Part shown: positions 846 to 31,760 of the stretch, in pieces
Position numbering within the stretch: the first letter of the stretch is position 1
Layout of the letters: every line of letters starts with the position of its first letter
Source: Prunus persica
Taxonomy: Eukaryota > Streptophyta > Magnoliopsida > Rosales > Rosaceae
Assembly: GCF_000346465.2 (NCBI RefSeq)
Contig: NC_034015.1
Span: 16,165,507-16,229,506 of the forward strand
Length of the DNA: 64,000 nucleotides
Direction of reading: 5' to 3'
The notes under the pieces: generated by a model
The model's input: only the letters and a program-made list of their open reading frames with translations
Told to the model about the DNA's origin: nothing
Databases searched by the model: none
Made by a program: the position numbers and the translations under genes

Positions 846-1403
846 ATGGATAGTTCATCAAAGTTCGAACTTCCCAAATCAGCACTTGATCAGCCCATCA
901 ACAGTTCTAGTACCGATCATGTTGATGATGGTGGTGAATTAGTCCTATGCCTTTCAATCTTCGGATTCAGCCAACTCTCTGTCACTGATCAAGATGAGAG
1001 GACGAAAGAAATTCACAATAAAGTAGGTGAAGATGTTACAGTGGAGCAACTCCCAGAGGAAACTGAAGACGGTTCAAGAAACTCCCCTTCCCTGACCAGG
1101 CTTTTTTCCTTTCTGCAATTATATAAAAAATTCATGAGCGAAAGGCGATTTGAAGAGCTAATTTTTGGGTTCAAAACTCAACTAGATGCCAATGATCAAC
1201 AACAACTGATTGGACAAGTACTGGATCATTTTACAGTGGACAATATCCAGAAAACCCCTGAGCAAACAGGAGATTTCATAATCAGAACATTCACAGAGCT
1301 GGCTAGGGACCATGCTGACCATATTTATACACATCCAGCTTGGGAAGATATTAAAAGATTCAAAAATACATACAAGGTGGAAAAAAAGTGTCAAACATCC
1401 TAA
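846..1403 (+). CDS. Module-repeat protein, copy 1 (truncated, 185 aa), unknown function
   Basis: First and shortest member of a family I do not recognise. Residues about 33-95 form an A-type module (FGFSQLSVTDQ, then VEQLPEETED). Residues about 103-160 form a B-type module (LDANDQQQLIGQ, then FIIRTFTELARDH). The paralogue at 23562 carries six such modules. Here homology stops near residue 165, and the last codons run into sequence that elsewhere is the 3' flank of a DUF247 gene, so the C-terminus was probably replaced by a deletion. Its stop codon lies only 25 bp from the stop of the convergent DUF247 gene at 1429-2919. No signal peptide or membrane segment is seen. It could be a functional two-module protein or a remnant with an intact frame. 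The ATG at 846 is the first in frame after an upstream stop. Confidence 0.55.
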   Translation: MDSSSKFELPKSALDQPINSSSTDHVDDGGELVLCLSIFGFSQLSVTDQDERTKEIHNKVGEDVTVEQLPEETEDGSRNSPSLTRLFSFLQLYKKFMSERRFEELIFGFKTQLDANDQQQLIGQVLDHFTVDNIQKTPEQTGDFIIRTFTELARDHADHIYTHPAWEDIKRFKNTYKVEKKCQTS

Positions 1404-1428
1404 CATTATTGCTACTCTAGCGCTTCCC

Positions 1429-2919
1429 TCAAGGCCCAGATGGACTGGCATATTCATAAACTGTAAAGAAGGTCTGAATTGCAGTGAGTAATAGGAGTAT
1501 AACAGCAGCTAAAGCAGACAAGAAAGACCATGGAGTACCAAAATACTTGGATCTAAAACCTTCCCATCGCACATGCCACATATTTATATGGTACTCATTC
1601 ACCTCTTTGAACAACTTCCATAGATAACTCCCATCGATATCAAACGTCACACCTTTGCCAAGGTTTTTGAAGAAATGAACGACCTCCTCATCAGTTCCAA
1701 GATAATTCTCGACAATTTTCTTGTCACAGAGAAATGATACGTCTTCAGGCGTGCGGATCAGACAACTCATGAATGCAGCATAACTTGTTACATGCTTTGA
1801 GCAATGAGAGTAGCATTGTTCAAATGCTACAAAATTCATCAATAAATCAGTCCGTAGATTGTCGATTACTACGTGTGGAATTTCCAGCACTCCATTGCAA
1901 AATCTTATGTCTAAGAAGCTCACTGCCTCCCTTGTCTTGAACTTAATTCCAGCTTGACGAAGCTTTTTGGCTGACTGGATAAGTTCAATGGGCGGAGAAG
2001 TATTTCCCTTCCTTCCTGCTGCAAATCCTTGTAGAGGCTTTTTGACATACTTAATCAATTGAACTAATGGACGAACATTCCGAGGCTCTTCCTGAGGTGA
2101 ATGATCGTAGGGTTTAGGGATAAAACTCCAGCGGAGTAAATCCAGTAAATGTTTTCCTTCAACAGTAGTGAAGTCCTGATTTAACACTTGCTCAGGGGTT
2201 TCTAATGCATAACGAAAGAAGTCTAAAGCAAGTTTGGCTAAGGATGAATCACTATCTTTCCTTGAAGGTTTTGATTCATCAAATAGTTTTTGAAGAAGGA
2301 AGAAAGGAATTTGATTCTCGAAACGAAAAAGGTCTTGTAAGATATTAGCGAATACCCATGCCAAGTTAAAGATGGGATCGTCTGGATCACTTGGTGACAA
2401 TTTTCCAACTTTGCAAAAGAGTTCAATAGTGAAGAGACCATCCAACACCATCATCTCAACTAGATCATCACTGCTTAAGCTGATGGTCTCCGAATAGCAC
2501 TCTCTTATTTCTTCTTCCATTGCTGCTACCACCTGCTGATAGTGATCAAGTGTTGGGCCGTTTGAAGGTGTTCGAGCAAGTAGACCGCGAAGATATTTCC
2601 ATTTGTGTTGGTGTATCATCTCCAAATGTTGATCACCATGGTGAAATGGACCACAGGAGACAATATGGGGCTGGTAAGTCTTCTTGTTTATTTCCGCAAG
2701 GCATTGACGTACCTTGAAGATGCAACAAGATTCCTTTCCTGCTAATGGATGCAGAAGCCATCTTGTTTCCTGGATTCTTTGGTCCAATGGTGTCGTCTGG
2801 ATATTGGTTGTCGCTGCAATTGTGATGAGAGCATGATCCCTTCCTCCATTAGCTGTTGGTGAGCTTGATTGTGAGTTCATTAGTATACTCTGCCTTGAAT
2901 TGATGAAGTTGAATGACAA
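1429..2919 (-). CDS. DUF247 / UPF0481 family protein, intact (496 aa)
   Basis: Intact intronless DUF247 protein (UPF0481, At3g47200-like). The N-terminal hallmark is at about residues 65-100: CCIFKVRQCLAEIN, then the YQPHIVSCGPFHHG motif followed by HLEMIHQHK. The family's central 'MMVLDGLFTIELF' and 'LRFENQIPFFLLQKLF'-type segments follow. One hydrophobic helix lies near the C-terminus (about residues 466-485, FLSALAAVILLLLTAIQTFF), which predicts a C-terminal membrane anchor. The length is normal for the family. A second in-frame Met at residue 14 (codon at 2878-2880) matches the start of the paralogue at 27567 and may be the ancestral start. It is convergent with module gene 1. DUF247 genes are mostly uncharacterised; in grasses some are self-incompatibility determinants, but nothing here shows that role. 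Confidence 0.9.
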   Translation of the reverse strand: MSFNFINSRQSILMNSQSSSPTANGGRDHALITIAATTNIQTTPLDQRIQETRWLLHPLAGKESCCIFKVRQCLAEINKKTYQPHIVSCGPFHHGDQHLEMIHQHKWKYLRGLLARTPSNGPTLDHYQQVVAAMEEEIRECYSETISLSSDDLVEMMVLDGLFTIELFCKVGKLSPSDPDDPIFNLAWVFANILQDLFRFENQIPFFLLQKLFDESKPSRKDSDSSLAKLALDFFRYALETPEQVLNQDFTTVEGKHLLDLLRWSFIPKPYDHSPQEEPRNVRPLVQLIKYVKKPLQGFAAGRKGNTSPPIELIQSAKKLRQAGIKFKTREAVSFLDIRFCNGVLEIPHVVIDNLRTDLLMNFVAFEQCYSHCSKHVTSYAAFMSCLIRTPEDVSFLCDKKIVENYLGTDEEVVHFFKNLGKGVTFDIDGSYLWKLFKEVNEYHINMWHVRWEGFRSKYFGTPWSFLSALAAVILLLLTAIQTFFTVYEYASPSGP

Positions 2920-4021
2920 AAGATGTGTTTACCACTAATAAAGATTTAACTCTCAAGAAGACGAGACCTGAGTAATTAGCAGCAATGCCGGAATCAGAAA
3001 ATTTTCTAGGGGTGTGCTAATATATATATTTTTGGTACGGGAGATCTATATAAACAATGTGAACCAAAAAAATAAATTTGGTATGCTAAGTAATACAGTG
3101 AGAACCAAAACTAAAACATATATCATCACTAAAATATAAACAATAACATCCTAATTCCATACCTCCTTCTCTCTCTTTCTCAGCTCTCTCGTGCAGCTAG
3201 GAAAGGAAAGAAAGAGGGAATAAACATGGGGAGAGAAAGAGGAACGACAAGACGAGAGAGCAGAAACAAAAAGAAAAGTGAAAGGAGAGAGACGAAAGAG
3301 AGAGAGAGAGGCAACCAGGCCATCCAATGACAGATCACCGTGGGCAAGTGTATTGGATCATCGACACGTGCAAAGAATCCAACGGTATTCAATATTTTGG
3401 TGGGCGACAGCCCTAGCCCTAGCCTGTGCCTCCAATAATTCTGTGACTTCTATCATTTTATTATTTTTCTTTTTTGATAGGGACTGTCACTTCATTTTCA
3501 GTATAAACTAGATGAAAACGAGTCCACTGAATTTCCATGAAAGAGAAAGAAAGAACAAAGATGGAGGGAGACAATGGATGGTTCCTCGCAGTTTCAGAGA
3601 AGACTGACTGAAGGTGATCAAATTTTCTTTTTACTATTTTTAAGATGCTGAAGTTTTATCCCAACTCTTCTATAAATAGTATATACGAATTCTTGATCTA
3701 CTCAATACATAAAAGTATTTTTCACTGCTCTTACAAGCTATAAATTAGATAACTGACAAAATTTATGTACTTGTGGCATTTACAGACAGTTTCATACTCA
3801 ATTAAAAAGCTATTTTAGGAATTCTTTTTAAAATTATATACATATTACTCGGCACATATTTAATCTTTAAAAGTTATTTTAGTGGAAATTTAGCTAAATT
3901 CACTAGAAAACTAGTTTAAGAAACATACAAGTATTACTTAACAACAAATCTCCCAAACTTTTCAAAATATTAGCCTAACTTATTTTCAGCACCTCCTCAA
4001 CCATAGAAGCAATCTCCAACT
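2920..4021. other. DUF247-1 upstream flank and first copy of the duplicated spacer
   Basis: About 2920-3180 is the upstream flank of the DUF247 gene. About 3180-3320 is purine-rich (GA-type low complexity). About 3365-4021 is the first copy of a spacer that recurs at about 8300-9920, interrupted there by a transposon, with part recurring at about 11585-11740. It contains a TATA-like TATAAAT at 3671-3677 and an exon-like stretch ending in 'catttacag' at 3785, but no credible coding sequence. I read it as promoter and leader debris of a duplicated unit. Confidence 0.5.
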
Positions 4022-4230
4022 GACACACACAGTGGCGGATCCACGTTGGGACAAGAGGGGTCGGACGACCCCTTGGAAGGCTGGAAATTTGGCAAGGGAG
4101 TCCATGAAAGCCCCTTGGACAGCTGCTGGAAGCCCCCTTGTATGCACACAATGTGCTCGACGAAATGCCCCAACGAAATGTCCTACACAGCTGCGCAGCT
4201 GCGCTGCGCGTAATTTTTTTTTTAAAACCA

Positions 4231-4318: not shown

Positions 4319-4489
4319 TTAAAAAAAAAAAAAAAAAAAAACAGCACACACGCACAGCAGCTCTGCACAGATTCATTTTCTCCAAACCTTTCATTCCCAA
4401 TTCCACTGTAAGATCCCACATCAACCAACGGAGAGGGGGGTGATGTGCCTTATATGGCACACCCGCATCCATCTAGCACGAGGCCTTTT

Positions 4490-4597
4490 GGGAGCTCACT
4501 GGCTTCGGAGTTGTAAGAACTCCGAAGTTAAGCGAGTGGGAGGTTGGAGCAATCCCAGGATGGGTGACCACCCTGGGAAGTTGCTCCGTGAGCTCCC
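4490..4597 (+). ncRNA. 5S rRNA-like domain in the Cassandra 5' LTR
   Basis: The stretch resembles plant 5S rRNA: 'aactccgaagttaagcg' covers the A-box region and 'aggatgggtgacc' the C-box, with closing GGGAGCTCAC/GTGAGCTCCC ends that can pair. Cassandra LTRs are known to carry such a domain with an RNA polymerase III promoter. It is not a functional ribosomal 5S gene. Confidence 0.75.
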
Positions 4598-4844
4598 AGA
4601 AACAAAACCGTGCGGGCTGGTGAGAATGTAGCCAGGCCCAAAGCGGACAATATCGTTCTACGGCGGAGCCGGTCCGGGGTGTGACAATTTGGTATCAGAG
4701 CCACTCTGCCGTGTGGTGCGAGTGTGCCGACGGGGACGTCGGGCCCTTAAGGGGGGTGGATTGTAAGATCCCACATCAACCAACGGAGAGGGGGGTGATG
4801 TGCCTTATATGGCACACCCGCATCCATCTAGCACGAGGCCTTTT

Positions 4845-4952
4845 GGGAGCTCACTGGCTTCGGAGTTGTAAGAACTCCGAAGTTAAGCGAGTGGGAGGCT
4901 GGAGCAATCCCAGGATGGGTGACCACCCTGGGAAGTTGCTCCGTGAGCTCCC
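4845..4952 (+). ncRNA. 5S rRNA-like domain in the Cassandra 3' LTR
   Basis: Second copy of the 5S-like domain, 355 bp downstream of the first. It differs from the first by one base visible by eye (near 4898). Same interpretation. Confidence 0.75.
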
Positions 4953-5198
4953 AGAAACAAAACCGTGCGGGCTGGTGAGAATGTAGCCAGGCCCAAAGCG
5001 GACAATATCGTGCTACGGCGGAGCCGGTCCGGGGTGTGACATCCACAGCCCCTCTTCCCATCCTCTCAAACCCTAACCTCCCAACCTCTCAACCTTGGAC
5101 AACCTCTTTTTAGCATTATTTTCTTTATAGAAAAATTTCAGAACTTTTACACTAAGCCCCCTTGGCTACATAATCTTGGATCCGCCACTGGACACACA

Positions 5199-6280: not shown

Positions 6281-6659
6281 ATGAATCAATTGAGGGCTGC
6301 CTGAATCATTTTTCAGAATCAAATTGAAGGCTGAATTATCAAGAAAGCTCTGGTACTTACTTCTTATAAACTTCTTGCACTTGTTATTTATTTATTTTTT
6401 TAAAATAAATATTTTTCACTTAGAGAAACCAGCTATTACTAGATTAACCTCAAAATTTTAACCAACTATTGTAGGGTATATTGCATTAAATTCCTTATTG
6501 TTTGTCTTATAAATAGTTAATTAGGTTGATTGCAGCATGATATTGAGTGTTAACTAAGTGTACCAAAATTACAAACCCATTCGTTTCGATCATCATTTCA
6601 TACCGTCTACATTTTTGTTACTTTTCTTATTTTGCTTAATTTTTGTACTTTGTTTTAAG
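6281..6659 (+). other. Conserved 5' leader exon and 5'UTR intron of module gene 2
   Basis: The leader (about 6281-6352) is strongly conserved in units 3 (11452-11524), 4 (23170-23243) and 5 (28220-28292). It is followed by a donor 'ctg|gtactt' at 6353 and an acceptor-like 'tgttttaag' ending at 6659. A 5'UTR intron is inferred. RNA evidence is needed for exact exon ends. Confidence 0.45.
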
Positions 6660-6725
6660 AATAAGTAACGATTGGGGATTTCTACCAAAACAGAGTTTGT
6701 AAGCCTTACTCCGGGTCGATTATCA

Positions 6726-7766
6726 ATGTCGGCATTCCCAAACCCACCCCATGAGCCCAATGCTGCTGAAGTTCTCCGGAATATGTTGAGTTTCGGGTTC
6801 AGCCTACTATCCCCCAACGATCAGCAAGACAAGATTGAACAAATCTCCGAAAAACTTGCTGCTGGAGTTGCTGATGTCGAAAGACTTGAAGGGGAAACAG
6901 AGGAAGATTTGAGAAGGAAACAATTCGCTGAGCTACTTAATAAAGCTCCGGTCCATACACAGGTTGATTTATTCAGGGAGTTTACGTACAAATTCAACGA
7001 TGAAAAACGCTTGTGTGAGGCGATTCTTTTGTTCAGGCAACTGGATTCCAATGAGCAACAAGAAACGATTGAAGAAATGCTTCGTCAATTGGTGCAGGAG
7101 GAACCCTTTCTGTGTTGTTTTATATACATCCTCATTCAGAACAAAAAAAAAGAAAGGAAACATTTGAAACTCAAGAGACTCTCCGAGGAAAGCGAGGAGG
7201 ATTTTAGGCTCAGAAGATTCATAAAGCTGTGTAGCACATACAACGGCCTTGTGCTGAACTTCATAATTAATGAACCTAAGAAGTGCGATCTAGACGCTCT
7301 ACTTATTCAGGCATCAGGTAACGAAGAGATAAAAGAAACCAAACAGTCCCGCTATGCTGAATATTACTTGGGGCTGTCAATTATTTGGTTCAAAGCACGA
7401 TGGGCCAGTGATCCAGAAGGCCTCATTCATTTAATTATTAGTAAAGTTGGAGAAGGTGATCATATCATTGAGAAACTCGTCAATGAGACTGAGGAGGATT
7501 TTCGGCTCAGGAGATTTACAGAGTCGTTTAAACAACTTCAATTCAGTTCCCAGGAGGATGTTGTGAAACATATTCAAGATATCGTAATTAATGATCTAGG
7601 TCTTCCTATACCTCAATATTTATCAGCTCATGTGACAAAGGAGCTTGCTCTTGAATTAATAAAGTTGAAAATTCCAAATCTAAGAGGATCAGGAGGAGCA
7701 GCAGCCACTCAAGGAGGAGGGCAGGGAGCAATTACACAAGGAGGGCAGGGGACAAGCCAACAGTAG
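6726..7766 (+). CDS. Module-repeat protein, copy 2 (346 aa), unknown function
   Basis: Unrecognised protein with three modules of about 80 residues. Module D spans about 14-90 (FGFSLLSPNDQQDKIEQ, then ERLEGETEEDL). Module E spans about 92-190 (RQLDSNEQQETIEE, then RLSEESEEDFRLRRF). Module F spans about 215-300 (YAEYYLGLSIIWFKARW, then LVNETEEDFRLRRFTES). A low-complexity Gly/Gln/Ala tail follows (about 320-346, GGGQGAITQGGQGTSQQ). The modules are rich in charged and hydrophobic residues and look all-alpha. There is no signal peptide or TM segment, so it is probably cytosolic or nuclear. The first in-frame ATG is at 6726; an in-frame stop lies just upstream. Module E has an odd hydrophobic/lysine-rich stretch (about residues 123-146) that replaces different sequence in copy 3. 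The first 310 bp are almost identical to copy 3. Confidence 0.72.
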   Translation: MSAFPNPPHEPNAAEVLRNMLSFGFSLLSPNDQQDKIEQISEKLAAGVADVERLEGETEEDLRRKQFAELLNKAPVHTQVDLFREFTYKFNDEKRLCEAILLFRQLDSNEQQETIEEMLRQLVQEEPFLCCFIYILIQNKKKERKHLKLKRLSEESEEDFRLRRFIKLCSTYNGLVLNFIINEPKKCDLDALLIQASGNEEIKETKQSRYAEYYLGLSIIWFKARWASDPEGLIHLIISKVGEGDHIIEKLVNETEEDFRLRRFTESFKQLQFSSQEDVVKHIQDIVINDLGLPIPQYLSAHVTKELALELIKLKIPNLRGSGGAAATQGGGQGAITQGGQGTSQQ

Positions 7767-12713: not shown

Positions 12714-12924
12714 AAGAGAAAAACATATTTGATTCCCACCCTTTTAGAATTCTCAAAGCTCTCTCTCTTTCTTAATTACAGATTTCCTCTTTCTTCCATT
12801 CTCCTGAATACTTAGCAAAAACCACTTATGTTGCTTAGTTTTTGTCCTTTGTTTTAAGAATAAGTAACGATTGGGGATTTCTACCAAAACAGAGTTTGTA
12901 AGACTTACTCCGGGTCGATTATCA

Positions 12925-13926
12925 ATGTCGGCATTCCCAAACCCACCCCATGAGCCCAATGCTGCTGAAGTTCTCCGGAATATGTTGAGTTTCGGGTTCA
13001 GCCTACTATCCCCCAACGATCAGCAAGACAAGATTGAACAAATCTCCGAAAAACTTGCTGCTGGAGTTGCTGATGTCGAAAGACTTGAAGGGGAAACAGA
13101 GGAAGATTTGAGAAGGAAACAATTCGCTGAGCTACTTAATAAAGCTCCGGTCCATACACAGGTTGATTTATTCAGGGAGTTTAGACGCAAATTCAACGAT
13201 GAAAAACGCTTGTGTGAGGCGATTCTTTTGTTCAGGCAACTGGATTCCAATGAGCAACAAGAAACGATTGAAAAACTGCTTGATCAGTTCATGAGGCAGA
13301 GAAGAGAAGAAGTCAAAGATGTCATACTCGAGAGACTCTCTGAGGAATGCGAGGAGGATTTCAGGCTCAGAAGATTTGTAAAGCTTTGTAACAAATCTGA
13401 CCACCTTTTGGATGACTTCATATTGAATGAACCTAAGAAGTGGGATCTAGACGCTCTACTTATGCAGGCATCAGGTAACGAAGAGATGGAAGAAATCAAG
13501 GAGTCCCGCTATGCTGAATTTTACTTGGGGTTGTCAAGTATTTGGTTCAAAGCACGATGGGCCAGTGATCCAGAATGCCTCATTAATTTAATTCTTAGTA
13601 AAGTTGGAGAAGGTGATCATATCATTGAGAAACTCGTCAATGAGACTGAGGAGGATTTCCTGCCCAGGAGATTTACAGAGTCCTTTAAACAACTTCAATT
13701 CAGCACCCAGGAGGATGTTGTGAAACGTATTCAAAATATCTTATTTTATAATCGATATTCTGTCTGTCGAAAGGAAGGACGTTGGATAACAGAAGAGCCT
13801 CGGTTTCCTCTTGAATTCATAAAGGTGAAAACTCCAAATCTAAGAGTATCAGGAGGAGCAGCAGCCACTCAAGGAGGAGGGCAGGGAGCAATTACACAAG
13901 GAGGCCAGGGGACAAGCCAACAGTAG
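12925..13926 (+). CDS. Module-repeat protein, copy 3 (333 aa), unknown function
   Basis: Same architecture as copy 2. Module D spans about 14-90 (FGFSLLSPNDQQ, ERLEGETEEDL). Module E spans about 92-170 (RQLDSNEQQETIEKLLDQF, then VKDVILERLSEECEEDFRLRRF). Module F spans about 190-275 (EFYLGLSSIWFKARW, then LVNETEEDFLPRRFTES). The Gly/Gln tail ends GGQGTSQQ. Module E here matches the copy at 23562 better than copy 2 does, so it is probably the ancestral form. The C-terminal part of module F (about residues 272-292, YNRYSVCRKEGRW) differs from copy 2. The first ATG in frame is at 12925. Its own promoter and leader (about 11406-11524) are displaced by inserts, so expression may be altered. Confidence 0.72.
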   Translation: MSAFPNPPHEPNAAEVLRNMLSFGFSLLSPNDQQDKIEQISEKLAAGVADVERLEGETEEDLRRKQFAELLNKAPVHTQVDLFREFRRKFNDEKRLCEAILLFRQLDSNEQQETIEKLLDQFMRQRREEVKDVILERLSEECEEDFRLRRFVKLCNKSDHLLDDFILNEPKKWDLDALLMQASGNEEMEEIKESRYAEFYLGLSSIWFKARWASDPECLINLILSKVGEGDHIIEKLVNETEEDFLPRRFTESFKQLQFSTQEDVVKRIQNILFYNRYSVCRKEGRWITEEPRFPLEFIKVKTPNLRVSGGAAATQGGGQGAITQGGQGTSQQ

Positions 13927-15865: not shown

Positions 15866-16452
15866 CTAAGTTCTCGGAGGACGGGCACATACATAAACAG
15901 CAAAGAAGGCCTGAATTGCATTGAGTAGTAGGAGTATAATAGCAGCTAGAGCAGACAAGAAAGTCCATGGAGTACCAAAATACTTGAATCTAAAACCTTC
16001 CCATCGCACATGCCACATACTTCTATGGTACTCATTCACGTCCTTGAACAACTTCCATAGATAACCCTCGCCAATATAGGCACATCTTTGCCAAGGTTTT
16101 TGAAGAAATGAACAACCTCCTCATCAGTTCCAAGATAATTCTCCACAATGTTCTTGTCACAGAGAAATGATACGTCTGCAGGCGTGCGGATCAGACAACT
16201 CATGAATGCAGCATAAGTTGTGAAATGCTTTGAGCGATGAGTGTAGCATTGTTCAAATGCTACAAAATTCATCAATAAATCAGTACATAGATCGTCAAGT
16301 ACTATGTGTGGAATTTCCAGCAGTCCATTGCAAAATCTTATGTCTATGAAGGTCATTGCCTCCCTTGTCTTGAACTTAATTCCAGCTAGACGAAGCTTTT
16401 TGGCTGATTGGATCAATTCGATCGGCGGACGGGGCTTCTCTTGACGTGAATG

Positions 16453-18561
16453 TGTCAAACAAAGTACAACAAATATTCAGATATGCTCGTATATGCTCAT
16501 ATTATTATTCTTCTCCAATATGGAGGTATTTATACAAGTACAAATATGTGTTAACACTAAATAAAATAGGAAATATATCTAAATTACAATAGGAAGTAAA
16601 TTTCTATTACAATAGGACAAAATATAATTGGTAAGTAACCAAAATTCTAATGAAATAAGGAACCAAAATCCTGACTAAGTAAGGACTCCCCCTCAAGTTG
16701 GGCAAAGATATTTCGCACGCTCAACTTGACAAGCGAGTCACAGAACACCATACTTGAGAAGTAACAATTGTAAAGAAGGTCTTTTTGTCAACCACGAGTG
16801 AAACAAGTACAAACTAAAGCAAAGTTTGCAACGGAAACACAAGAGCAAACCCTAAAAAATAGGGCACATAGCAGAACACAGAAACCCTGTGAGCACGGCT
16901 GTAGATAAGGCAGAACACAGAAACCCTGTGAGCACGGCAATAGGTAAAGCAAAACACAGAAACCCTGTGAGCACAGCAGCAGATAAGGTAAAACACAGAA
17001 ACCCTGTGAGCACGGCAGCAGATAAGGCAAACCACAGAAACCCTATGAGCACGGCAATAGGTAAGGCAGAACACAGAAACCCTGTGAGCACGGCAGTAGA
17101 TAAGGCAGAACACAGAAGCCCTGTGAGCACGGCAGTAGGTAAGGCAGAACACAGAAACCCTGTGAGCATGGCAGTAGATAAGACAAAACACAGAAACCCT
17201 GTGAGCACGGCAGTAGGTAAGGCAAAACACAGAAACTCTGTGAGCAAGGCAGTAGATTAGGCAGAATACAGAAATCGAAACTCTGTGAGCACGACAGTAG
17301 ATAAGGCAGAACACAAAGGCAAAGGGCAAAGCCACAGCAACAACAACGACAATTACTACATCAACGGAAAGTGAAGCAAGCAAAGGCAACATCGACCACA
17401 ACAGAAACACACCAGCAAAGGCATGAGCAACAATACTGGCACCATAACAGGCAAGAGCAACAATACTGGTACCAAACAACAGCAATACAAGGCATTAGCA
17501 CCAGAAAGAGCAATATAAGGCACTGATACCAGCAAGACAAGGCAGGGCAAACAACTGTGGCAGCAACAACAACAGAGACAACTTGTCTTCACTCTCCCTC
17601 TCCCTTTGAAGAGAAGGGGTCGATAGAGCCATATGATCAATGGTACTTGAGAAACAAGCATGGACAATCAGCCATGATAGATAGGTAGGTGAATTGCAAT
17701 GGAATAGATGAGTAGCAGTGTCACTCCCCCTCAAATCCGACAATGTATGAGAGTCAATATTTGGAGAAAGTAACACCCAAATAAACAGAGAGACAAAAGC
17801 CAACTAGGAGAAGGCTTGGCGAGCGGTGACGAGGCTTGCGGAGGTTTGAGATGGCTCGGTGACCGGTGATGAGGCTTACGGAGGAAAGAGATCAGGCCAT
17901 CAATGGCCAAGGGGCGTGTTGCCCATATGGTATACATTTAAAAGAGAGGCTCGGCTGTGAGCACAAGAGACCGAAACTAAGCAAGAGACTGAAACTAACA
18001 TGGGCTCAATATGATTTTAACAGAAAGCAAGCTCATAGAGAGATTAAAAGTAAGAGAAAAAAAGGCAGCAGCAGGCATAGGTAGAGAAAAAGAAAGGTAA
18101 TGACTCAACATAAACACAGCAAGGACAAAGACAAGGGTAAAATTGCAGAAAGGTGCGGTTATGGCTAAGGCAGAAGAAATATATGTTGATTATTAAGGAA
18201 AGGAGAAACGGGGATTTACAGCAAGGTGAAGATCCATGATGGGTTAGGAATGAGGAACGCTAACGACTCTCAATTTGTCAGAGGATCTCAAGGATTAGTA
18301 ACTTGGCTTTGATACCATATCAAACCAAGTAGGGCAAATATTCAGATATGCTCGTATATGCTCGTATTATTATTCTTCTCCAATATAGAGGTATTTATAC
18401 AAGTACAAATATGTGTTAACACTAAATAAAATAGGAAATATATCTAAATTACAATAAGAAGTAAATCTCTATTACAATAGGACTAAATAATAATTTGTAA
18501 GTAACCAAAATTCTAATGAAATAAGGAACCAAAATCCTAATTAAGTAAGGACTCGCCAATA
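16453..18561 (-). mobile_element. Non-autonomous LTR retrotransposon inside the DUF247 pseudogene
   Basis: The direct repeats of about 243 bp are 16453-16695 and 18318 to about 18561. A primer-binding site TGGTATCAAAGCCA (on the minus strand, at 18304-18317) sits directly inside the right repeat, so the element runs on the minus strand. A purine tract (plus strand 'actccccctc') borders the left repeat. GAATG flanks the insert (16448-16452 and 18562-18566), matching the uninterrupted 'gtgaatgatc' of the intact gene. The internal 1.6 kb has no gag or pol, only a minisatellite. By eye the LTRs differ at roughly 15 of 240 sites, so it is much older than the Cassandra at 4407. The right edge is uncertain by about 3 bp. 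Confidence 0.85.
16876..17320. repeat. 39-bp minisatellite in the LTR element
   Basis: About 10 tandem units of exactly 39 bp start at 16876, 16915, 16954, 16993, 17032, 17071, 17110, 17149, 17188 and 17227, plus a degenerate 11th. The core is 'acacagaaaccctgtgagca'. The unit is a multiple of three and lacks stops in several frames on both strands, so it generates long spurious frames of 13-residue repeats. Each unit holds a small palindrome (CACAGAAACCCTGTG-like). Confidence 0.95.
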
Positions 18562-19240: not shown

Positions 19241-19867
19241 TAGAGCAACTCCACCTATTTGCCATTTGTTATGGCAAGGGAGGGCTAGGGCAGTCACTAT
19301 TCATGTGAATAGTGGTTGCCCTTGCAAATAGTATTGTGTGTTTTCACCCATTGTCATGACAAATGACAGTTACTATTCATTTTTTTGTTTTTTTCACAAA
19401 TTTTTTTACTTCAATAATTAATTTGGATAATATTTTCGGATAAGATTTTCGGGTTCCTACGTGTCAAGACTATTCAAAATCGGATAAGATTTTTGGGTTC
19501 AAATTTCAGATGAATTTCAAAATTCAAATTTCAGATAAATTTGGGTTCAAATTTCAGATGAATTTCAAAATTCAATTTCAGATAAATTTCAAATTTCAGA
19601 TAAGATTTTCATCCAATCAAATCAAGTCACGTGGCATCTCTATCTGGCTAAAATTTTCTATAAAACTAGAGGCTCAGCTCATACCTCTCACACCACATCT
19701 TTCTATATTTTCATTTCCCATAGTTTAGAATTCATACTCCATTCTCAATGTAAGATTTTAGGAGATGCTTAGAGAGGCAAGAGCGAGAAATAAATGAGAG
19801 AAGCCATAGACAAGATGAAAGAAATTCAGAATTACAGGGAGAAGAAGATGAACAAGTTGTCATAGCA

Positions 19868-20460
19868 GTGGCTTTGTTTGATGAAGAGAACCAAGGTCGC
19901 CGCAGTGGTTCACGAGTCGGTCGTCGCCAGAATATGGACAGACATAGGTATTCTCGGGGTAAGAATCTTTTGGAAAATTATTTTATCCCAACTTCTTTGT
20001 ACTCTGATGTTGATTTTCGAAGGCGATATAGAATGCAACTCCATTTGTTCAATATTTGCAATTATGATGCATATTTTATCCAAAAGTTGATGCTGCTGGG
20101 GTTTTGGGACTTCTTCCGAAGCAAAAGCTTACAGCTGTTATACGAATGTTGGCGTATGGTTCATCTGCTGATCAGGTAGATGAGATTGCCCGGATGGGGA
20201 AGTCCACTACGTTTGAGGCATTGGTAAGATTTTGTGATGCAGTTGAAACTCTTTATACTCGGGACTACCTGTGCTGACCAACTCCAAGGGACCTCTAATG
20301 GCTATTACAGAAAGCCGAACCTCGAGGATTTCCTGGAATAATCCGTAGCATCGACTGCATGCACTGGCAATAGAAGAATTGGCCAACTGCTTGGCAAGGA
20401 GACTACGGGAATCGGAAGGGCCAAAAAAGTATCATCATGGAAAAGGCTTCTTCTCATAAC
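19868..20460 (+). pseudogene. PIF/Harbinger transposase (DDE nuclease) fragment
   Basis: The conceptual protein begins with a GRR/VGRRQ-type basic stretch and the family's 'DFRRRYRM' segment. After a frame change it gives readable pieces of the plant PIF transposase: an alternating 'LRMLAYGSSAD.VDEI.RMGKSTTFE' region (about 20140-20215) and 'RGFPGIIRSIDCMHWQ' with the first catalytic Asp (about 20325-20375). The reading frame is broken by frameshifts and stops, for example within the CMHW region at about 20370. The C-terminal catalytic part is missing. Not functional. Confidence 0.75.
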
Positions 20461-20494
20461 ATACATTCGTTCTAGCTTCCAAAATTATTTTGTT

Positions 20495-21691
20495 TCAGGG
20501 GACATATGGCTTGTATCCATCGCCATGGTTTCTTGATCCGTCTTGTCCATCTCTTTTTTTGCGCAAATACTCCCTTTCTTTTGCATATTCTGCTTGAATT
20601 GCCATCTCGTTATCTTGGCGTTTCTGCTCCATTTCAATTCTTATGCCACTCTTCCTTGCGATTTCCTCCAAAAATTTTGATGTATTACTGCTCGAATTAC
20701 CCCCTTTCTTTGCCTTTGCAGCCTTCCGGCCAATGGGCTTTGGCTCCTTTTCGATGGGTGAGTCTTGACTCATAGGGGAATCGAGATGTGAATCCGATGT
20801 CATTGAATCATGGAGTGGCATCTCATTTAACATAACGGCGGGACTAGTGTGAATAATTATGAAGCGTTTGCAATTTTTCACCACCTCCAAACATTCATGA
20901 TGGTTGAAACTTTTTTTGCCTTGTCCAGTTGCACCAAACCTCATCTGTGCTTGAATCATCTATGGAAAAAAAAAATAATGAAAATGCAAGAAATATTTAA
21001 AATATATTGGATATGCAAGTAACAAAAAAAAATAATGGAAATGCAATTAACCTTACAAATATATTGGAAGTGCAAGAAATATTAAGAAACAATTGGAAAT
21101 GCAAGAAATATTAATAAAATATTAAAAATGCAAGTAACAAAAAGAAATAATGGAAATGCAATTAACCTTACAAATATATTGGAAGTGCAAGAAATATTAA
21201 GAAAGAATTGAAAATACAAGAAATATTAACAATATTGGAAGTGCAAGAAATATTAAGAAACAATTGAAAATGCAAGAAATATTAACAAAATATTGAAAAT
21301 ACAAGAAATATTAATAAAATATTGAAAATGCAATAAACATTAGAAAAATATATATATTAGGACATTAAACTTAATAAAACGAAAATTACAAAATACTTAC
21401 CTTGTTAGTAAGATTTTCCCCGCTTCTACGGTTGTCCATCGCTTTTGCCAAGGCATCTCTCCATTTTGCCAACTCTTTGTTGAGAATTTTTCACTTACTA
21501 GACAATGTCATTTCGGTACGAGTGAACCTCGGAATTTTTTCACAAAATTCGGCATGAATTTTTTTCCACATATGAAAAAATTTCATATCATTGCCTAACA
21601 CGGGACAATGACAAATTTGGAGCCAAGCCTCACACCAGGAAACATCTTCAATGATGCTCCACGCCCCTCCGGTTTCGATAGAAGAAGCCAT
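20495..21691 (-). pseudogene. PIF/Harbinger ORF1 (SANT/Myb-like DNA-binding protein), probably inactive
   Basis: The 5' exon (to 21691) encodes WSIIEDVSWCEAWLQICHCPVLG..., matching the tryptophan-spaced SANT/Myb-like domain of plant PIF ORF1. The 3' exon (20495-20959) encodes a Lys-rich protein with PIGRKAAKAKKG and a coiled C-terminal region (EMEQKRQDNEMAIQAEYAKERE), typical of the NAM-associated C-terminus. Between them lies an intron-like stretch (about 20960-21400) full of short repeats of 'aaaatgcaagaaatatta'. An in-frame stop closes the first exon at 21491, so splicing or a defect must be assumed. The partner of the transposase at 19868. Confidence 0.6.
20960..21360. repeat. Tandem AT-rich repeats in the ORF1 intron
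   Basis: Irregular repeats of about 18-60 bp built on 'ttggaaatgcaagaaatatt' and 'aatgcaagtaacaaaaa' occur at least eight times. Confidence 0.8.
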
Positions 21692-23437: not shown

Positions 23438-23592
23438 ATGTTTGTGTTCCCAAAACCAGCCCATGAGCCCAATACCAGTTCTGCTGATGCTGCGGATGAT
23501 GCTGAACTACTCTTGAGTCTCTCAGTCTTTGGGTTCAGCCAACTCTCTGCCTCTGATCAACATGAGAAGACGAAAGAAATCTATAAAAAAAG
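23438..23592 (+). pseudogene. Frameshifted N-terminus of module gene 4
   Basis: From the ATG at 23438 the frame reads MFVFPKPAHEPN... and then FGFSQLSASDQ, matching the starts of copies 2, 3 and 5. It ends at a stop just after the A7 run (23585-23591). One A fewer would join it to the long downstream frame. The same A7 occurs in copy 5 (28738-28744), so it is inherited and not a local sequencing slip. Confidence 0.65.
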
Positions 23593-25205
23593 TAGTTGAA
23601 GATGTTGTAGTGGAGCAACTCTCGGACGAAAGTAAAGGGGATTTCAGACCCAGAACATTCACCGAACTATTCAAGAAACTTCCCTTCCCTGACCAGAACC
23701 ATTTCCTGACCACAGTTATAAAGAAATTCAAGCGCCAGAGTCAAATTGGGGAGTTGATTTCTTGGTTTACTACCGAACTAGACGCCAATGATCAACAACA
23801 ACTGATTGGAAAATTGATTCATGTCAAAGCTGATGACGAAACCAATGACGGTTTCAGGCTGAGAAGATTTACTCAGCTTTGTAAGGATTATACTGACTAT
23901 GTTTATATGCACTTTGTCGCCTGCAGGGAAGAATATGGCACGAAACCAAAACATACACAGCAGACATCCGGTACTCATGAAGGTGGTTTGGATTGGCAGT
24001 CCCGTTTTAATGAGTTTTTCTTAGGTTTCTCAATTATATGGTTCAAGGGACAAAGTTCCCATGGTCAATGGCAGCTGATTGACCAACTCTGTGATGGAGT
24101 TAAAGGTGTTGTCGCTGAGAAGCTCGCAGACGAAAGCGACTCAGATTTCAAACTCAGAAGATTCACAGAGCTATGTAAGAAAGTGGTTGACTTTGGTGTC
24201 CAAGTCCACTTCCTTGACAAAGCTGAAGAGCAGCTGCTGCACAAACGAAGAGACCTTCCTCACAGGGTGCTCGTTCAGCCCCAAGATTCTGCCAGTGCTG
24301 CCGAATTACTCTCGCAGCTTTCGAGTTTTGGGTTCAGCCTACTATCCCCCAACGACCAACAAGACAATATTGAACGCATCTCTAACGAACTTGCTGCCGA
24401 AGGTGTTAATAATAATATTGTCGAAAGACTTGCAGGGGAAACAGAGGAAGATTTGAGAAGGAAAACATTCGCAAAGCTGTTTAATAAAGCTCCGGTGGCT
24501 ACACGAGTTCATTTATTCGGGGCGTTTACTGAAAAATTCTTTGTTGAAAGACGCTTATGCGATTCGATTCTTTTGTTCAGGCAATTGGATTCTAAGGAGC
24601 AACAAGAAAAGATTGAAAATATGCTTGATCAGTTCATGGGGTGGGAAGGCGAAGATGTCAAAGATGTCATACTCGAGAGACTGTCCGAGGAATGCGATGA
24701 GAATTTTAGGCTCAGAAGATTTATTAAGCTGGGTAGCACATATACATTCCTTTTGGATCACTTCATATGGGATGAAGCAAAGAAGTGGGATCTAAAAGGT
24801 TTAGATATGCAGGCGTCAGGTAAAGAAAAGATAGAAGAAATCAAGCAGTACCGCCATGCTGAATTTTACTTGGGATTTTCAATTATTTGGTTCAAAGCAG
24901 TATGTGCCAGTGATCCGAGAAACATCATTCAAGTATTTTTTGGCAAAGTTGGAGGAGGAGGTGATCATACAATTGAGAAACTCGTAAACGAGACTGAGGA
25001 GGATTTCCGGCTCAGAAGATTTACAGAGTCGTTTGAACGACTTCAATTCCGTTTCCAGGAGGATCTTGTGAAATGTATTCAAATGACACTATTGCATGAT
25101 CTAGGTGTCGGTGTTAAATTCATTATGATGGGAACTCCAAACCTAAGAGGATCAGGAGGAGTAACAGCCGATCAAGGAGGAGTAACAGCCGCCAACAGTA
25201 GATGA
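23562..25205 (+). CDS. Module-repeat protein, copy 4 (547 aa, six modules), unknown function
   Basis: The largest member. Six modules occur as two triads. A spans about 1-60 (VVEQLSDESKGDF), B about 66-125 (LDANDQQQLIGK, GFRLRRFTQL) and C about 150-225 (FFLGFSIIWFKGQ, EKLADESDSDFKLRRFTEL). D spans about 238-320 (FGFSLLSPNDQQ, ERLAGETEEDL), E about 322-400 (RQLDSKEQQEKIEN, ERLSEECDENFRLRRF) and F about 415-500 (EFYLGFSIIWFKA, LVNETEEDFRLRRFTES). A Gly-rich tail follows. Copies 2 and 3 equal the second triad and copy 1 equals A+B. Expected homology starts further upstream at the ATG at 23438, but a run of seven A (23585-23591) puts that start out of frame, so I chose the first in-frame ATG at 23562. 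That drops the first half of module A. The open frame beyond this point is intact, which argues for function. Confidence 0.6.
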   Translation: MRRRKKSIKKVVEDVVVEQLSDESKGDFRPRTFTELFKKLPFPDQNHFLTTVIKKFKRQSQIGELISWFTTELDANDQQQLIGKLIHVKADDETNDGFRLRRFTQLCKDYTDYVYMHFVACREEYGTKPKHTQQTSGTHEGGLDWQSRFNEFFLGFSIIWFKGQSSHGQWQLIDQLCDGVKGVVAEKLADESDSDFKLRRFTELCKKVVDFGVQVHFLDKAEEQLLHKRRDLPHRVLVQPQDSASAAELLSQLSSFGFSLLSPNDQQDNIERISNELAAEGVNNNIVERLAGETEEDLRRKTFAKLFNKAPVATRVHLFGAFTEKFFVERRLCDSILLFRQLDSKEQQEKIENMLDQFMGWEGEDVKDVILERLSEECDENFRLRRFIKLGSTYTFLLDHFIWDEAKKWDLKGLDMQASGKEKIEEIKQYRHAEFYLGFSIIWFKAVCASDPRNIIQVFFGKVGGGGDHTIEKLVNETEEDFRLRRFTESFERLQFRFQEDLVKCIQMTLLHDLGVGVKFIMMGTPNLRGSGGVTADQGGVTAANSR

Positions 25206-26090: not shown

Positions 26091-27567
26091 CTAGTGCTTC
26101 TTCCCAGGTTTCGGCGGACGGGCATATCCATAAACAGCAAAGAAGGCCTGAATTGCAGTGAGTAGTAGGAGTATAATAGCAGCTAGAGCAGACAAGAAAG
26201 TCCATGGAGTACCAAAATACTTGAATCTAAAACCTTCCCATCGCACATGCCACATACTTCTATGGTACTCATTCACGTCCTTGAACAACTTCCATAGATA
26301 ACCCTCGCCAATATCTAAAGGCACATCTTTGCCAAGGTTTTGGAAGAAATGAACTACCTCTTCATCAGTTCCAAGATAATTCTCGATAATGTTCTTGTCG
26401 CAGAGAAACAATACGTCTTCAGGCGTGCGGATCAGACAACTCATGAATGCAGCGTAACTTGTTACATCCTTTGAGCAATGAGAGTAGCATTGTTCAAATG
26501 CTACAAAATTCATCAATAAATCAGCCCGTAGATTGTCGATTACTATGTGTGGAATTTCCAGCACTCCATTGCAAAATCTTATCTCTAAGAAGCTCACTGC
26601 CTCCCTTGTCTTGAACTTAATTCCAGCTTGACGAAGCTTTTTGGCTGACTGGATAAATTCAATGGACGGAGAAGTATTTCCCTTCCTTCCTGCTACAAAC
26701 TTTTGCATCGCGTTCCTTGTTCCTTCTAGAGGCTTTTTGACATACTTAATCAATTGAACTAATGGACGAACATTTCGAGGCTCTTCCTGAGGTGAATGAT
26801 CTTAGGGTTTAGGGATAAAACTCCAGCGGAGTAAATCCAGTAAATGTTTTCCTTCAACATTAGTGAAGTCCTGATTTAACACTTTCTCAGGGGTTTCCTA
26901 CTGCATAACGAAAGAAGTCTAAAGCAAGTTTGGCTAAGGATGAGTCACTATCTTTTCTTGAAGGTTTTGATTCATCAAATAGTTTTTGAAGAAGGAAGAA
27001 AGGAATTTGATTCTCGAAACGAAAAAGGTCTTGTAAGATATTAGCGAATACCCATGCCAAGTTAAAGATGGGATCGTCTGGATCACTTGGTGACAATTTT
27101 CCAGCTTTGCAAAAGAGTTCAACAGTGAAGAGACCATCCAACACCATCACCTCAACTAGATCATGACTGCTTAAGCTGATAGTTTACGAATAGCACCCTC
27201 TTATTTCTTCTTCCATTGCTGCTACCACCTGCTGGTAGTGATTAAGTGTTGGGCCGTTTGGAACAAGTAGATCACGAACAAATCTCCTTTTGTGTTGCTG
27301 TATCATCTCCAAATGTTGATCACCATAGTGATATGGACCACAGGAGACAATATGGGGCTGGTAAGTCTTGTTGTTTATTTCCACAAGGCATTGACGTACC
27401 TTGAAGATGCAACAAGATTCGTTTCCTGCTGATGGATGCAGAAGCCATCTTGTTTCCTGGATTCTTTGGTCCAATGGTGTCGTCTGGATAATGGTTGTCG
27501 CTGCAATTGTGATGACAGCATCATCTCTTCCTCCATTAGCTGTTGGTGAGCTTGATTGTGAGTTCAT
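26091..27567 (-). pseudogene. DUF247 pseudogene (nearly full length)
   Basis: It aligns along its whole length with the intact gene at 1429-2919, starting at MNSQSSSPTANGG. The N-terminal hallmark (YQPHIVSCGPYHYG), the MMVLDGLFTVELF segment and the C-terminal hydrophobic helix are all recognisable. It carries a nonsense codon after GCYS (27184-27186), a 1-bp insertion near 26898 ('tttcctactgc' for 'tttctaatgc') and a second nonsense codon in the KPYDHS stretch (26802-26804). Three separate lesions make it a clear pseudogene. It is convergent with module gene 4. Confidence 0.92.
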
Positions 27568-28142: not shown

Positions 28143-28150
28143 TATAAAAT
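28143..28150 (+). promoter_or_regulatory. TATA-like box of unit 5
   Basis: TATAAAAT, the counterpart of the box at 23096, followed by the conserved leader at about 28220-28292. Confidence 0.45.
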
Positions 28151-28360: not shown

Positions 28361-28423
28361 GTGATGTGTTTGCATTAGATATCTTAGAGAAACAAGCTAC
28401 TGCGAAAGCTCAAAAAATTTCAG
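28361..28423 (+). other. Putative 63-nt exon upstream of unit 5
   Basis: An open stretch of 63 bp lies between a strong acceptor (polyT-cag ending at 28360) and a consensus donor (cag|gtaaag at 28424). In one frame it reads DVFALDILEKQATAKAQKIS and can be joined in frame to a peptide (TTKDFYETRVCK...) that overlaps the start of the module CDS in another frame. A degenerate form occurs in unit 2 (about 6420-6455), and an inverted copy with a broken donor lies at about 31700. It may be a fossil exon of the gene that donated the promoter. Confidence 0.35.
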
Positions 28424-28590
28424 GTAAAGTTCGGATTAAATTGAGTTTATTTATATCTGTCTTACACGAAAATGCACTTAAAATAATGTTCGACTTACCA
28501 CATTTGTCATTTTTGTACTTGTTTTAGGACTAACGACTAAGGATTTCTACGAAACCAGAGTTTGCAAGTCTTTCTCCACGTCGATTATCA

Positions 28591-29503
28591 ATGTTTGTGT
28601 TCCCAAAACCAGCCCATGAGCCCAATACCAGTTCTCTTGATGCTGCGGATGATGCTGAACTACTCTTGAGTCTTTCAATCTTTGGGTTCAGCCAACTCTC
28701 TGTTTCTGATCAACACGAGAAGACGAAAGAAATCTATAAAAAAAGTAGTTGAAGATGTTGTAGTGGAGCAACTCTCGGACGAAATTAAAGAGGATTTCAG
28801 ACCCAGAATATTCACCGAGCTATTCAAGAAACTTCCCTTCCCTGACCAGAACCATTTCCTGACCACAGTTATAAAGAAATTCAAGCGCCAGAGGCAAATT
28901 AGCTAGTTGATTTCTTGGTGTACTACCGAACTAGACGCCAATGATCAACAATAACTGATTGGAAAATTGATTCATGTCAAAGCAGATGACGAAACCAATG
29001 ACGGTTTCAGGCTGAGAAGATTTACTCAGCTTTGTAAGGATTATACTGACTATGTTTATATGCATTTTGTGGCCTGCAGGGAAGAATATGGCACGAAACC
29101 AAAACATACACAGCAGACATCCGGTACTCATGAAGATGGGTTAGATTGGCAGTCCCGTTTTAATGAGTTTTTCTTGGGTTTCTCAATTATATGGTTCAAG
29201 GGACAAAGTTCCCATGGTCAATGGCAGCTGATTGACCAACTTTGTGATGGAGTTAAAGGTGTTGTGGTTGAGAATCTCGCAGACGAAAGCGACGCAGATT
29301 TCAAACTCAGAAGATTCACAGAGCTGTGTAAGAAAGTGGTTGACTTTGGTGTCCAAGTCCATTTCCTTGATAAAGCTGAAGAGCAGCTGCTGCACAAACG
29401 AAGAGATCTTCCTCACGGGGTGCTCGTTCAGCCCCAAGATTCTGCCAGTGCTGCCGAATTACCCTCGCAGCTTTTGAGTTTTGGATTCAGCCTGTTGGCG
29501 TGA
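28591..29503 (+). pseudogene. Module-repeat protein, copy 5 (dead, truncated)
   Basis: Close paralogue of the first half of copy 4. From the ATG at 28591 the frame has the same A7 frameshift (28738-28744). There are then nonsense codons at about 28904-28906 (after RQRQIS) and about 28949-28951 (CAA to TAA in the NDQQQ motif). An intact-looking stretch (28967-29503) covers modules B and C and the beginning of module D. Homology ends abruptly at about 29497 in FGFSLL, so the second triad is missing. The alternative start used in copy 4 is lost (ACG). Confidence 0.88.
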
Positions 29504-30390
29504 CTTGTGGATATTGACTTACTTTCCTTACAAACCAAACCATAAAGTATCTCTATGATTGTGTTGAAAATTTTGAAAGGATTGTTTTTGCTCTATCGTG
29601 ATGCAAACTATGAAGTGGTACGTTAATCAAGTTGTACTAATGTTTTGGCTTGAGGATACTAGCTTCATCCTTCTTCTTCTTTTTTTTTTATTTTTTTTTT
29701 AATAAAGGATATTTCCTATTGAAAGTGGCGATAGCAAACTAAACTCATACACACTATATGGATGTTAGGACTTGAACCAGGGGAGCAATTACTCCAAATC
29801 ACTACATTAGTGGGTCCTTTGCGCTTCATCCTTCTTTTTAGGAATATGAGGTACTATTAGGCCCAAAAGGGATATGACGCACTATTAGGCCTAAAAGCCA
29901 TTGCCAAATAATTATACAAAACCTGCTAATTAAAGTAAATATATGACAACCAAGACCTAATACAAGTAATAATTGTTCCAATTGAATCTCTGTATTCATT
30001 TCCATTTCCACTGGCCTGCAATCAAACTCATAGCTAAGTCAGGAGTGGCACTATTAAGATCCAAATTGGATAGGCCTGCAATCTATTGATGAAAATTATG
30101 TCCACAGTCCACACCATGCAGAACAATTACCTGCGCATTTAATTTGATCAAATTTTATCAGTGTTCTTTCTTCTAAATGCAGGTGGACACATATTCTTGT
30201 TCCATATATAATGCTATTCCAGTTCAATCTATTTTAAAGGTGGTCATCTGCATACTTTTCATGCTAAATAAAAGACCTAGAGCATTGTGGGTTGGTTGGA
30301 TTCCTTTTTTACTCACGACATCCAGTCATCCACATATGACGTACTTTAGCAACAATGACATGTTAGAGTTTGTATAGGAAAAAATACACT
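29504..30390. other. Non-coding sequence after the breakpoint of copy 5
   Basis: Unrelated to the module units up to about 30000. About 30000-30140 matches part of the flank of gene 3 ('aatcaaactcatagct', 'gtccacagtccacaccatgcagaacaattacctgc'; compare 14250-14360). No gene is seen. Confidence 0.4.
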
Positions 30391-31076: not shown

Positions 31077-31085
31077 ATGACCTAC

Positions 31086-31580
31086 TGTAGCAAAGGCACG
31101 AGATCGGCTCCGCCGTAGCATGATATTGTTTGCTATGGGCCCCCCTCTCTGCCCTCACTGTTTTGTTTCTGGGAACTCACGAGCAACTTCCCAGTGGGTC
31201 ATCCATCATAGGATTGCTCTAGCCCCAACTCGCTTAACTTCGGAGTTCCCAAAAGGGAACGTGCTAGATGGAGCTCTGCCTTAGGGGCCCACGTTCTCGT
31301 CGGCACATTCGCACCACACGGCAGAGTGGCTTTGATACCAAATTGTCACATCCCAGGATTAGCTCCGCCGTAACACGATATTGTCCGTTTTGGGTCCCCC
31401 TCTCTACCCTCATGATTTTGTTTCTGAGAACTCACTAGCAACTTCCCAGTGGGTCACCCATCCTAGGATTACTATAGCCCTAACTCGCTTAACTTCGGAG
31501 TTTCCATGACTTAGATAGAGGCGGGCATGTACATATAAGGCACATCACCCCCTCTCCGTTGGTCGATGTGGGATGTTACA
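31086..31580 (-). mobile_element. Decayed Cassandra TRIM, minus strand
   Basis: The right LTR (5' LTR of the element), 31344-31580, ends TGTTACA (complement of TGTAACATCCCACATCGAC). The primer-binding site complement TGGCTTTGATACCA lies at 31327-31340. A second, shorter LTR copy lies at about 31086-31278. Both carry the 5S-like stretch in reverse (cgcttaacttcggagtt; tgggtcaccca). Many differences from the element at 4407 and internal deletions show it is old. The target duplication is not recognisable. Confidence 0.8.
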
Positions 31581-31760
31581 AAATCCTTAGTCGTTTGGCT
31601 TAAAACAAGTACAAAAATTAGTAAGTCAAGCATTATTTTAAGTGTTTTTTCGTGTAAGACAGATACAAATAAACTCAATTTAATTCGAACCTTAACTGAA
31701 ATTTTGAGCTTTCGCAATAGCTGATTTCTCAAAGGTTTTGGACTAAACCTCATAAGACCG
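31581..31760 (-). pseudogene. Inverted remnant of a module-gene leader (unit 6)
   Basis: Read on the minus strand, this matches about 28380-28550: 'gaaatcagctattgcgaaagctcaaaatttcag', then 'attaaattgagtttatttgtatctgtcttacacg', then 'cgactaaggattt'. It stops exactly at the Cassandra end (31580). It shows that one unit was duplicated in inverted orientation and then mostly lost. Confidence 0.75.

What the first reader, a model, noticed from the sequence alone, without database searches (positions are those of the whole stretch)
846..31760. Undescribed module-repeat protein family repeatedly paired with convergent DUF247 genes
Five copies (plus an inverted leader remnant) of a protein family I cannot match to any known domain stand in tandem. 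Three DUF247 copies lie on the opposite strand, each just downstream of a module gene. The module proteins are made of about 80-residue units with a D/E-QQ motif, an E-x-E-[ED]-[FL] acidic motif and RRF-T-E. The physical pairing has been copied at least three times, which suggests a linked function or at least a linked duplication unit. DUF247 proteins are involved in self-recognition in grasses, so a partner encoded next door would be of interest. Family function here is unknown.
Basis: partly seen in the sequence, partly recalled or inferred. Interest (0 to 1): 0.88.

Follow-up and report, generated by a model that had tools for sequence, protein, structure and literature searches.

The report
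Helical-repeat gene family paired with DUF247
In peach, genes made of repeated units of about 80 amino acids, which match no Pfam family, sit beside genes for DUF247 proteins; the same two kinds of gene are neighbours in other plants of the rose family, and their products are likely, though untested, to work together.

Summary
The window lies on peach chromosome 7. It carries five copies of a protein family without a Pfam match and three DUF247 copies on the other strand. Most are damaged: two module genes are complete short forms, one long form changes frame near its 5' end, two are truncated; one DUF247 gene is intact.

New here: (1) the long protein has six homologous units, best read as a duplicated three-unit block; (2) predicted structures are all-helical, without a clear PDB match; (3) all 63 named proteins among 74 relatives are from Rosaceae; (4) in 6 of 9 comparable assemblies a module gene lies within three gene tags of a DUF247 gene or shares its gene model, so the pairing is likely older than the peach duplications; (5) the two short copies changed amino acids as fast as silent sites (ratio 1.25) yet kept open frames.

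A soluble scaffold working with membrane-anchored DUF247 is my preferred, untested mechanism. Inheritance as mere neighbours is nearly as likely. A grass-type self-incompatibility partner is not supported.

The parts
846..1403 (+). Truncated module gene (leader plus units 1 and 2 only)
   Evidence: tblastn 46% to P0005 residues 5-152; unit HMM 936-1079 and 1149-1349; ORF 831-1403
1429..2880 (-). DUF247 copy 1, the only intact one, 483 codons, most hydrophobic stretch near the C-terminus
   Evidence: PF03140 1.6e-119; 95% to almond L3X38_039235; no stop; KD19 maximum 2.29 at residue 456 of the 482 residues given
6726..7766 (+). Module gene, complete short form (units 4-6 plus Gly/Gln tail), 346 aa
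   Evidence: AF2 model m3799f1d8731b pLDDT 74.5
12925..13926 (+). Module gene, complete short form, 333 aa; P0003 (LOC109950453 isoform X2) differs at two residues
15869..18843 (-). DUF247 copy 2, broken: frame change at 16075, insertion, first ~145 residues not found
   Evidence: tblastn pieces of P0075: 15893-16075, 16075-16452, 18580-18843; PF03140 1.6e-38
16455..18557 (.). Insertion in DUF247 copy 2, bounded by ~238-bp direct repeats (94%); possibly a small LTR element, with a 39-bp minisatellite inside
23438..25205 (+). Module gene, long form; frame change at the A-run 23585-23591; ORF open from ATG 23562 to the stop (547 aa)
   Evidence: AF2 model m0ad06d4c7b91 pLDDT 74.7
26094..27567 (-). 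DUF247 copy 3 (PRUPE_7G150500, P0064), frame change near 26890 and stops; the public protein skips at least 26787-26901
28591..29521 (+). Module gene copy, truncated, same frame change as the 23438 copy, two further stops
31581..31734 (-). Inverted copy of module-gene 5' flank (84% to 28383-28546), non-coding

Best explanation
This is a family of repeat proteins, found so far only in plants of the rose family, whose genes lie beside DUF247 genes in peach and in several relatives, and its product is predicted to be a soluble all-helical scaffold that likely binds the neighbouring, probably membrane-anchored DUF247 protein. Shown: six homologous ~80-residue units; adjacency to DUF247 in Prunus, Malus, Rubus and Rosa; a threefold repeat of the pairing in peach; a Prunus short form that holds only the second block; fast protein change with open frames in the two short copies. 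Predicted: all-helical fold, no membrane segment or signal peptide in nearly all members. Inferred: the long form arose by doubling of a three-unit block; the two genes were duplicated together; the protein is cytosolic and would meet the cytosolic part of DUF247, serving as an adaptor in whatever surface recognition or stress signalling that DUF247 performs. Untested: expression, binding, function.
For: Unit homology: profile comparison of all 15 unit pairs gave probabilities of 96.5-99.7%; unit 1 pairs best with 4, unit 3 with 6 (scores 131, 119), unit 2 with 5 (77), though unit 5 scores slightly higher with 3 (80). AF2 models all-helical, pLDDT ~75. No 19-residue stretch with hydropathy >= 1.6 in 71 of 74 members. 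Neighbourhood: at least one module tag within 3 of a DUF247 tag in P. dulcis, P. campanulata, Rubus argutus and Malus DVH24, and one numbering step (assumed to be ten) in Rosa chinensis; a Rosa sericea gene model contains both. The Rubus 4317 and Rosa 103321 DUF247 proteins are sisters (100/100) and their neighbours 4318 and 103331 fall in one clade of four (90/74); a second Rubus pair (5781/5780) belongs to other clades in both trees. Short copies: dN/dS 1.25 outside the identical tract, three indels all multiples of three, no stop where about 4.7 were expected under no constraint, chance of none about 0.007 (0.013 if all changes fell on one copy). SR3G, an Arabidopsis DUF247 protein, is held at the plasma membrane by its C-terminal segment and its other fragments lie in cytosol and nucleus (PMC11952752, passages), which fits a cytosolic partner.
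Against: Neighbours can stay together without any shared function. Three of nine comparable assemblies show no close pair (Malus COP1 19 tags apart, Malus FF1 and Fragaria far apart), and Rubus 4229, 37108, 37109 and Rosa 110031 have no listed DUF247 within ten tags. In peach two of five module copies lack a DUF247 directly downstream, no duplicated block seen spans both genes of a pair, and most copies are damaged. Rosa sericea implies same-strand order, so convergence is not conserved. Rosa rugosa, whose two proteins share a chromosome-sized contig but are not known to be neighbours, falls in unlike places in the two trees. dN/dS near 1 also fits relaxed constraint. Grass DUF247 proteins are described as mostly non-cytoplasmic (PMC9825253, passages), which would put a cytosolic partner on the wrong side.
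Confidence: 0.4

Rival explanations
1. Passenger linkage: the module gene arose next to a DUF247 gene in an early Rosaceae ancestor and the two have since been inherited and duplicated as neighbours, with no joint function.
For: Copies decay freely: all five module copies in the window are shorter than, or frame-changed against, the six-unit relatives, and two of three DUF247 copies are broken. Duplicated blocks in the window take flanking DNA along. The DUF247 relatives extend to Tetracentron, Hevea, Populus and others where the searches found no module relative.
Against: Two separate pairs in Rubus, 1464 tags apart, each still paired; open frames kept in the short copies despite fast change.
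Confidence: 0.37
2. A Rosaceae analogue of the grass S/Z loci, with DUF247 as one determinant and the module protein as its linked, diversifying counterpart in self-recognition.
For: Linked genes, duplication, fast divergence of the short copies, DUF247 as pollen determinant in grasses (PMC13033167, passages).
Against: The grass partner is a small secreted peptide with signal peptide and cysteines; the module proteins are 333-346 aa in the peach short forms and up to 648 aa in relatives, with 0.6-2.3% Cys in 13 sequences computed, one of them a fragment; of 74 members only P0025 (P. mume) has a strongly hydrophobic stretch at its start. Rosaceae self-incompatibility is S-RNase based (recalled). 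Allelic diversity was not testable.
Confidence: 0.05
3. RNA-level regulation: convergent transcripts of the pair overlap and silence each other.
For: Convergent ORFs that end at 1403 and 1429.
Against: The other two pairs end 1.9 kb and 0.9 kb apart; the Rosa sericea order is not convergent.
Confidence: 0.04
4. Transposon-derived protein.
For: Repeated copies, a possible LTR element nearby.
Against: No Pfam transposon family among the weak matches of 38 members; the tree mostly separates Rosoideae from Prunus and Malus, as for an ordinary inherited gene. Copy number in a whole genome was not testable.
Confidence: 0.03

Closest known systems
Grass S and Z self-incompatibility loci (SDUF247/ZDUF247 with sS/SP, sZ/ZP)
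   Same: DUF247 gene(s) tightly linked to a gene of another, fast-changing family.
   Different: The partner in grasses is a secreted protein of 82-122 residues before cleavage (PMC9825253, passages); here a protein of 333 residues or more without an evident secretion signal, made of predicted helical units.
DUF247 family (PF03140), UPF0481 At3g47200-like proteins
   Same: Copy 1 in the window is a full-length member with a C-terminal hydrophobic segment.
   Different: In Rosaceae these genes neighbour the module family.
Tandem DUF247 block of oak (PMC9018854, passages)
   Same: Tandem DUF247 duplication with partial copies in a woody eudicot.
   Different: Far larger; the passages seen name 17 additional genes in the block without saying what they are.
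Alpha-helical repeat (solenoid) proteins such as HEAT, ARM, TPR
   Same: Tandem units predicted all-helical, soluble, with a presumed binding role.
   Different: Unit of about 80 residues with its own motifs; no Pfam repeat model matches and no clear structural match was found.

Membership tests
DUF247 (PF03140) | Match to the curated model above cut-off | tested here: met
   400.3 bits against cut-off 24.8 for copy 1; 193.6 and 64.2 bits for pieces of copy 3, 133.6 for a piece of copy 2
DUF247 (PF03140) | C-terminal transmembrane segment | tested here: met
   hydropathy only: KD19 maximum 2.29 at residue 456 of 482
Grass S/Z self-incompatibility locus | Adjacent gene for a small secreted peptide | tested here: not met
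   the peach module proteins are long and have no hydrophobic N-terminus; no dedicated search for another small peptide gene was made
Grass S/Z self-incompatibility locus | Pollen and stigma expression, allelic polymorphism | not testable with these tools
   no expression or population data
HEAT/ARM/TPR and other catalogued helical repeats | Match to a Pfam repeat model | tested here: not met
   five window module sequences and 38 alignment members scanned; no such repeat family listed at E <= 1 and E <= 0.1
HEAT/ARM/TPR and other catalogued helical repeats | Same fold | tested here: inconclusive
Module family (this report) | Two or more homologous ~80-residue units | tested here: met
   72 of 75 proteins have two or more unit hits, 3 have one

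The most novel reading that the evidence does not exclude
A Rosaceae-born protein family supplies a dedicated, fast-evolving cytosolic adaptor to DUF247 receptors, forming a two-gene recognition module that was assembled in this plant family independently of the DUF247-peptide system of grasses.
Probability: 0.2. Interest if true: 0.8.

Novelty: new variant of a known kind. Interest (0 to 1): 0.5.

Why it matters
How DUF247 proteins pass on a signal is an open question; a 2026 review says they may need additional partners inside the cell (PMC13033167, passages). A linked family of predicted helical scaffolds, present in major fruit crops, is a concrete candidate partner that ordinary binding and expression experiments can test.
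Full report
What the window is. The locus is therefore peach chromosome 7.

The observation. Condition of the copies, from tblastn pieces and reading frames: the copy at 846-1403 has two units; 6726-7766 and 12925-13926 are complete genes of 346 and 333 residues that hold only the second half of the long form; 23438-25205 and 28591-29521 are long forms that change frame at the same A-run, 5153 bases apart, so the change is probably older than that duplication or was copied by conversion; the second of them also has two stops and ends early. DUF247 copy 1 is intact (483 codons). Copy 2 is interrupted by a 2.1 kb insertion bounded by direct repeats of about 238 bp, 94% identical. Copy 3 changes frame near 26890; the public protein for it (P0064) skips that stretch as if it were an intron. 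The inverted remnant at 31581-31734 is 5' flank, not coding.

Anatomy. In the Prunus campanulata protein P0008 six units can be cut out. Unit 1 is closest to 4 and unit 3 to 6 in single-sequence and in profile comparison; unit 2 is closest to 5 in the profile comparison but scored higher against unit 3 in the single-sequence one, and unit 5 scores slightly higher with 3 than with 2. So the long protein is most simply a three-unit block that was doubled. An HMM of all units finds two or more units in 72 of 75 proteins, most often five (17) or six (16). A Gly/Gln-rich tail follows in many members. Two AlphaFold2 models, on 38 and 49 aligned sequences, are all-helical with mean pLDDT 74.7 and 74.5, pTM 0.53 and 0.71. 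Neither finds a clear match in the PDB. Of 74 members, three have a 19-residue stretch with hydropathy of 1.6 or more (P0014, P0025 at its very start, P0056); 71 have none, so the protein is predicted to be soluble.

Distribution. Two protein searches gave 74 family members in all. Eleven carry no name (one is the window's own). All 63 named ones are from Prunus, Malus, Pyrus, Rosa, Rubus, Fragaria or Argentina, all Rosaceae (taxonomy recalled). The search needs shared five-residue words and scored at most about 8000 candidates, so distant relatives elsewhere are not excluded. Relatives of DUF247 copy 1 reach Tetracentron, Hevea, Vaccinium, Populus and more; the DUF247 gene is therefore the older partner as far as these searches reach.

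Neighbourhood elsewhere. Genome context was not available, so I compared locus tags between the module lists and the DUF247 list (best 120 of 277 shown). Nine assemblies have tags in both. Close in six: P. dulcis (module 039233, 039236, 039238; DUF247 039235), P. campanulata (024575, 024579, 024587; 024578, 024580, 024585), Rubus argutus (005780, 005782; 005781, and 004318; 004317), Malus DVH24 (026445; 026442), Rosa chinensis (0103331; 0103321, adjacent if tags step by ten), Rosa sericea (one gene model, P0087, holds DUF247 at residues 1-378 and module units to 594; its other listed module protein, 007274, is 58 tags away). Not close in three: Malus COP1 (003570; 003551), Malus FF1 (027158; 003687), Fragaria x ananassa (003520; 008290, 001097, 008347). 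Within Rubus, six of nine listed module proteins lie within ten tags of a listed DUF247. In P. yedoensis both kinds occur on contigs of 91,949 and 107,059 bases, and in P. avium on one of 179,719 bases, judged by equal contig length. Because only the best DUF247 proteins were listed, and proteins are clustered at 90% identity, some apparent misses may be false. The Rosa sericea model implies same-strand order, so the convergent layout of peach is not universal.

Trees (38 and 37 rows, a selection of the fetched proteins plus window copies; in the module tree four rows fill under half of the columns). Peach 6726 groups with almond 039236 and 12925 with almond 039238, so the short copies predate the split of peach and almond, and the tag order in almond (module, DUF247, module, module) is the order in the window. 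Seven Prunus short or partial proteins, the two peach ones among them, form one clade (100/99). Other short proteins stand elsewhere: the P. mume/P. armeniaca pair P0025/P0029, and Malus P0055 on a long branch. Two Rubus pairs belong to different clades in both trees, which fits joint duplication of a pair; Rosa rugosa does not follow this pattern, but its two genes are not known to be neighbours. Several deep placements are weak.

Rates. By a Nei-Gojobori script, the 6726 and 12925 copies are identical over their first 86 codons and then differ with dS 0.126, dN 0.159, ratio 1.25. The identical block suggests recent gene conversion. The three indels are all multiples of three. A simple simulation of the same number of changes without constraint gives 4.7 stops on average and none in about 0.7% of cases if the changes are split between the copies (4.4 and 1.3% if all on one). 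So the frames were kept while the protein changed freely. That fits diversifying selection but does not prove it. Ratios for other pairs: 0.67-0.73 for short against long form, 0.20 for the two long copies, 0.43-0.92 for DUF247 pieces.

How it likely works. I prefer a soluble helical scaffold acting with the neighbouring DUF247 protein. DUF247 copy 1 has its most hydrophobic stretch near the C-terminus. In Arabidopsis the DUF247 protein SR3G is at the plasma membrane through its C-terminal segment, and fragments without it lie in cytosol and nucleus (PMC11952752, passages); a cytosolic partner is then plausible. A grass paper describes most of the protein as non-cytoplasmic (PMC9825253, passages), which speaks against it. 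In grasses the linked partner is a small secreted ligand (PMC13033167 and PMC9623065, passages); the module protein lacks these features. The rival, mere inheritance as neighbours, explains the linkage nearly as well, and I give it almost the same weight.

Verdict. A real repeat family without a Pfam model and without a paper in my searches, with an old link to DUF247. The link is shown; a shared function is not.

Noticed in passing
6648-6983 and 12847-13182: Near-identical tract (one mismatch from -78 to +258 around the ATG) between the two short module genes, which differ much more afterwards: likely recent gene conversion.
   Followed up: partly
P0087 (Rosa sericea ABKV19_007216): One predicted protein contains DUF247 without its C-terminal segment followed by module units; either a joined gene model or a true fusion.
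   Followed up: partly
16455-18557: 2.1 kb insertion in DUF247 copy 2 bounded by 94% direct repeats, with a stretch resembling a tRNA-Met primer site (recalled) and an 11-copy 39-bp minisatellite at 16871-17315.
   Followed up: partly
19754-20959: Two ORFs that look to me like a PIF/Harbinger transposase piece and its NAM-like partner (recalled impression); Pfam gave no match at 0.001.
   Followed up: partly
4407-5041: A 280-bp tandem duplication, 99.3% identical, with weaker inverted relatives at 31102-31581.
   Followed up: no
49157-50833: GRAS-domain gene on the - strand; no miR171 site with up to 3 mismatches in the window.
   Followed up: partly
56741-57931: Cupin exon that runs into a long Glu/Arg-rich repeat tail.
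   Followed up: no
62166-63560: F-box gene with At3g26010-like beta-propeller.
   Followed up: no
Prunus mume, PMC6371585: Non-coding transcripts annotated UPF0481 At3g47200-like are reported in a flower study (passages); whether they come from this locus is unknown.
   Followed up: no
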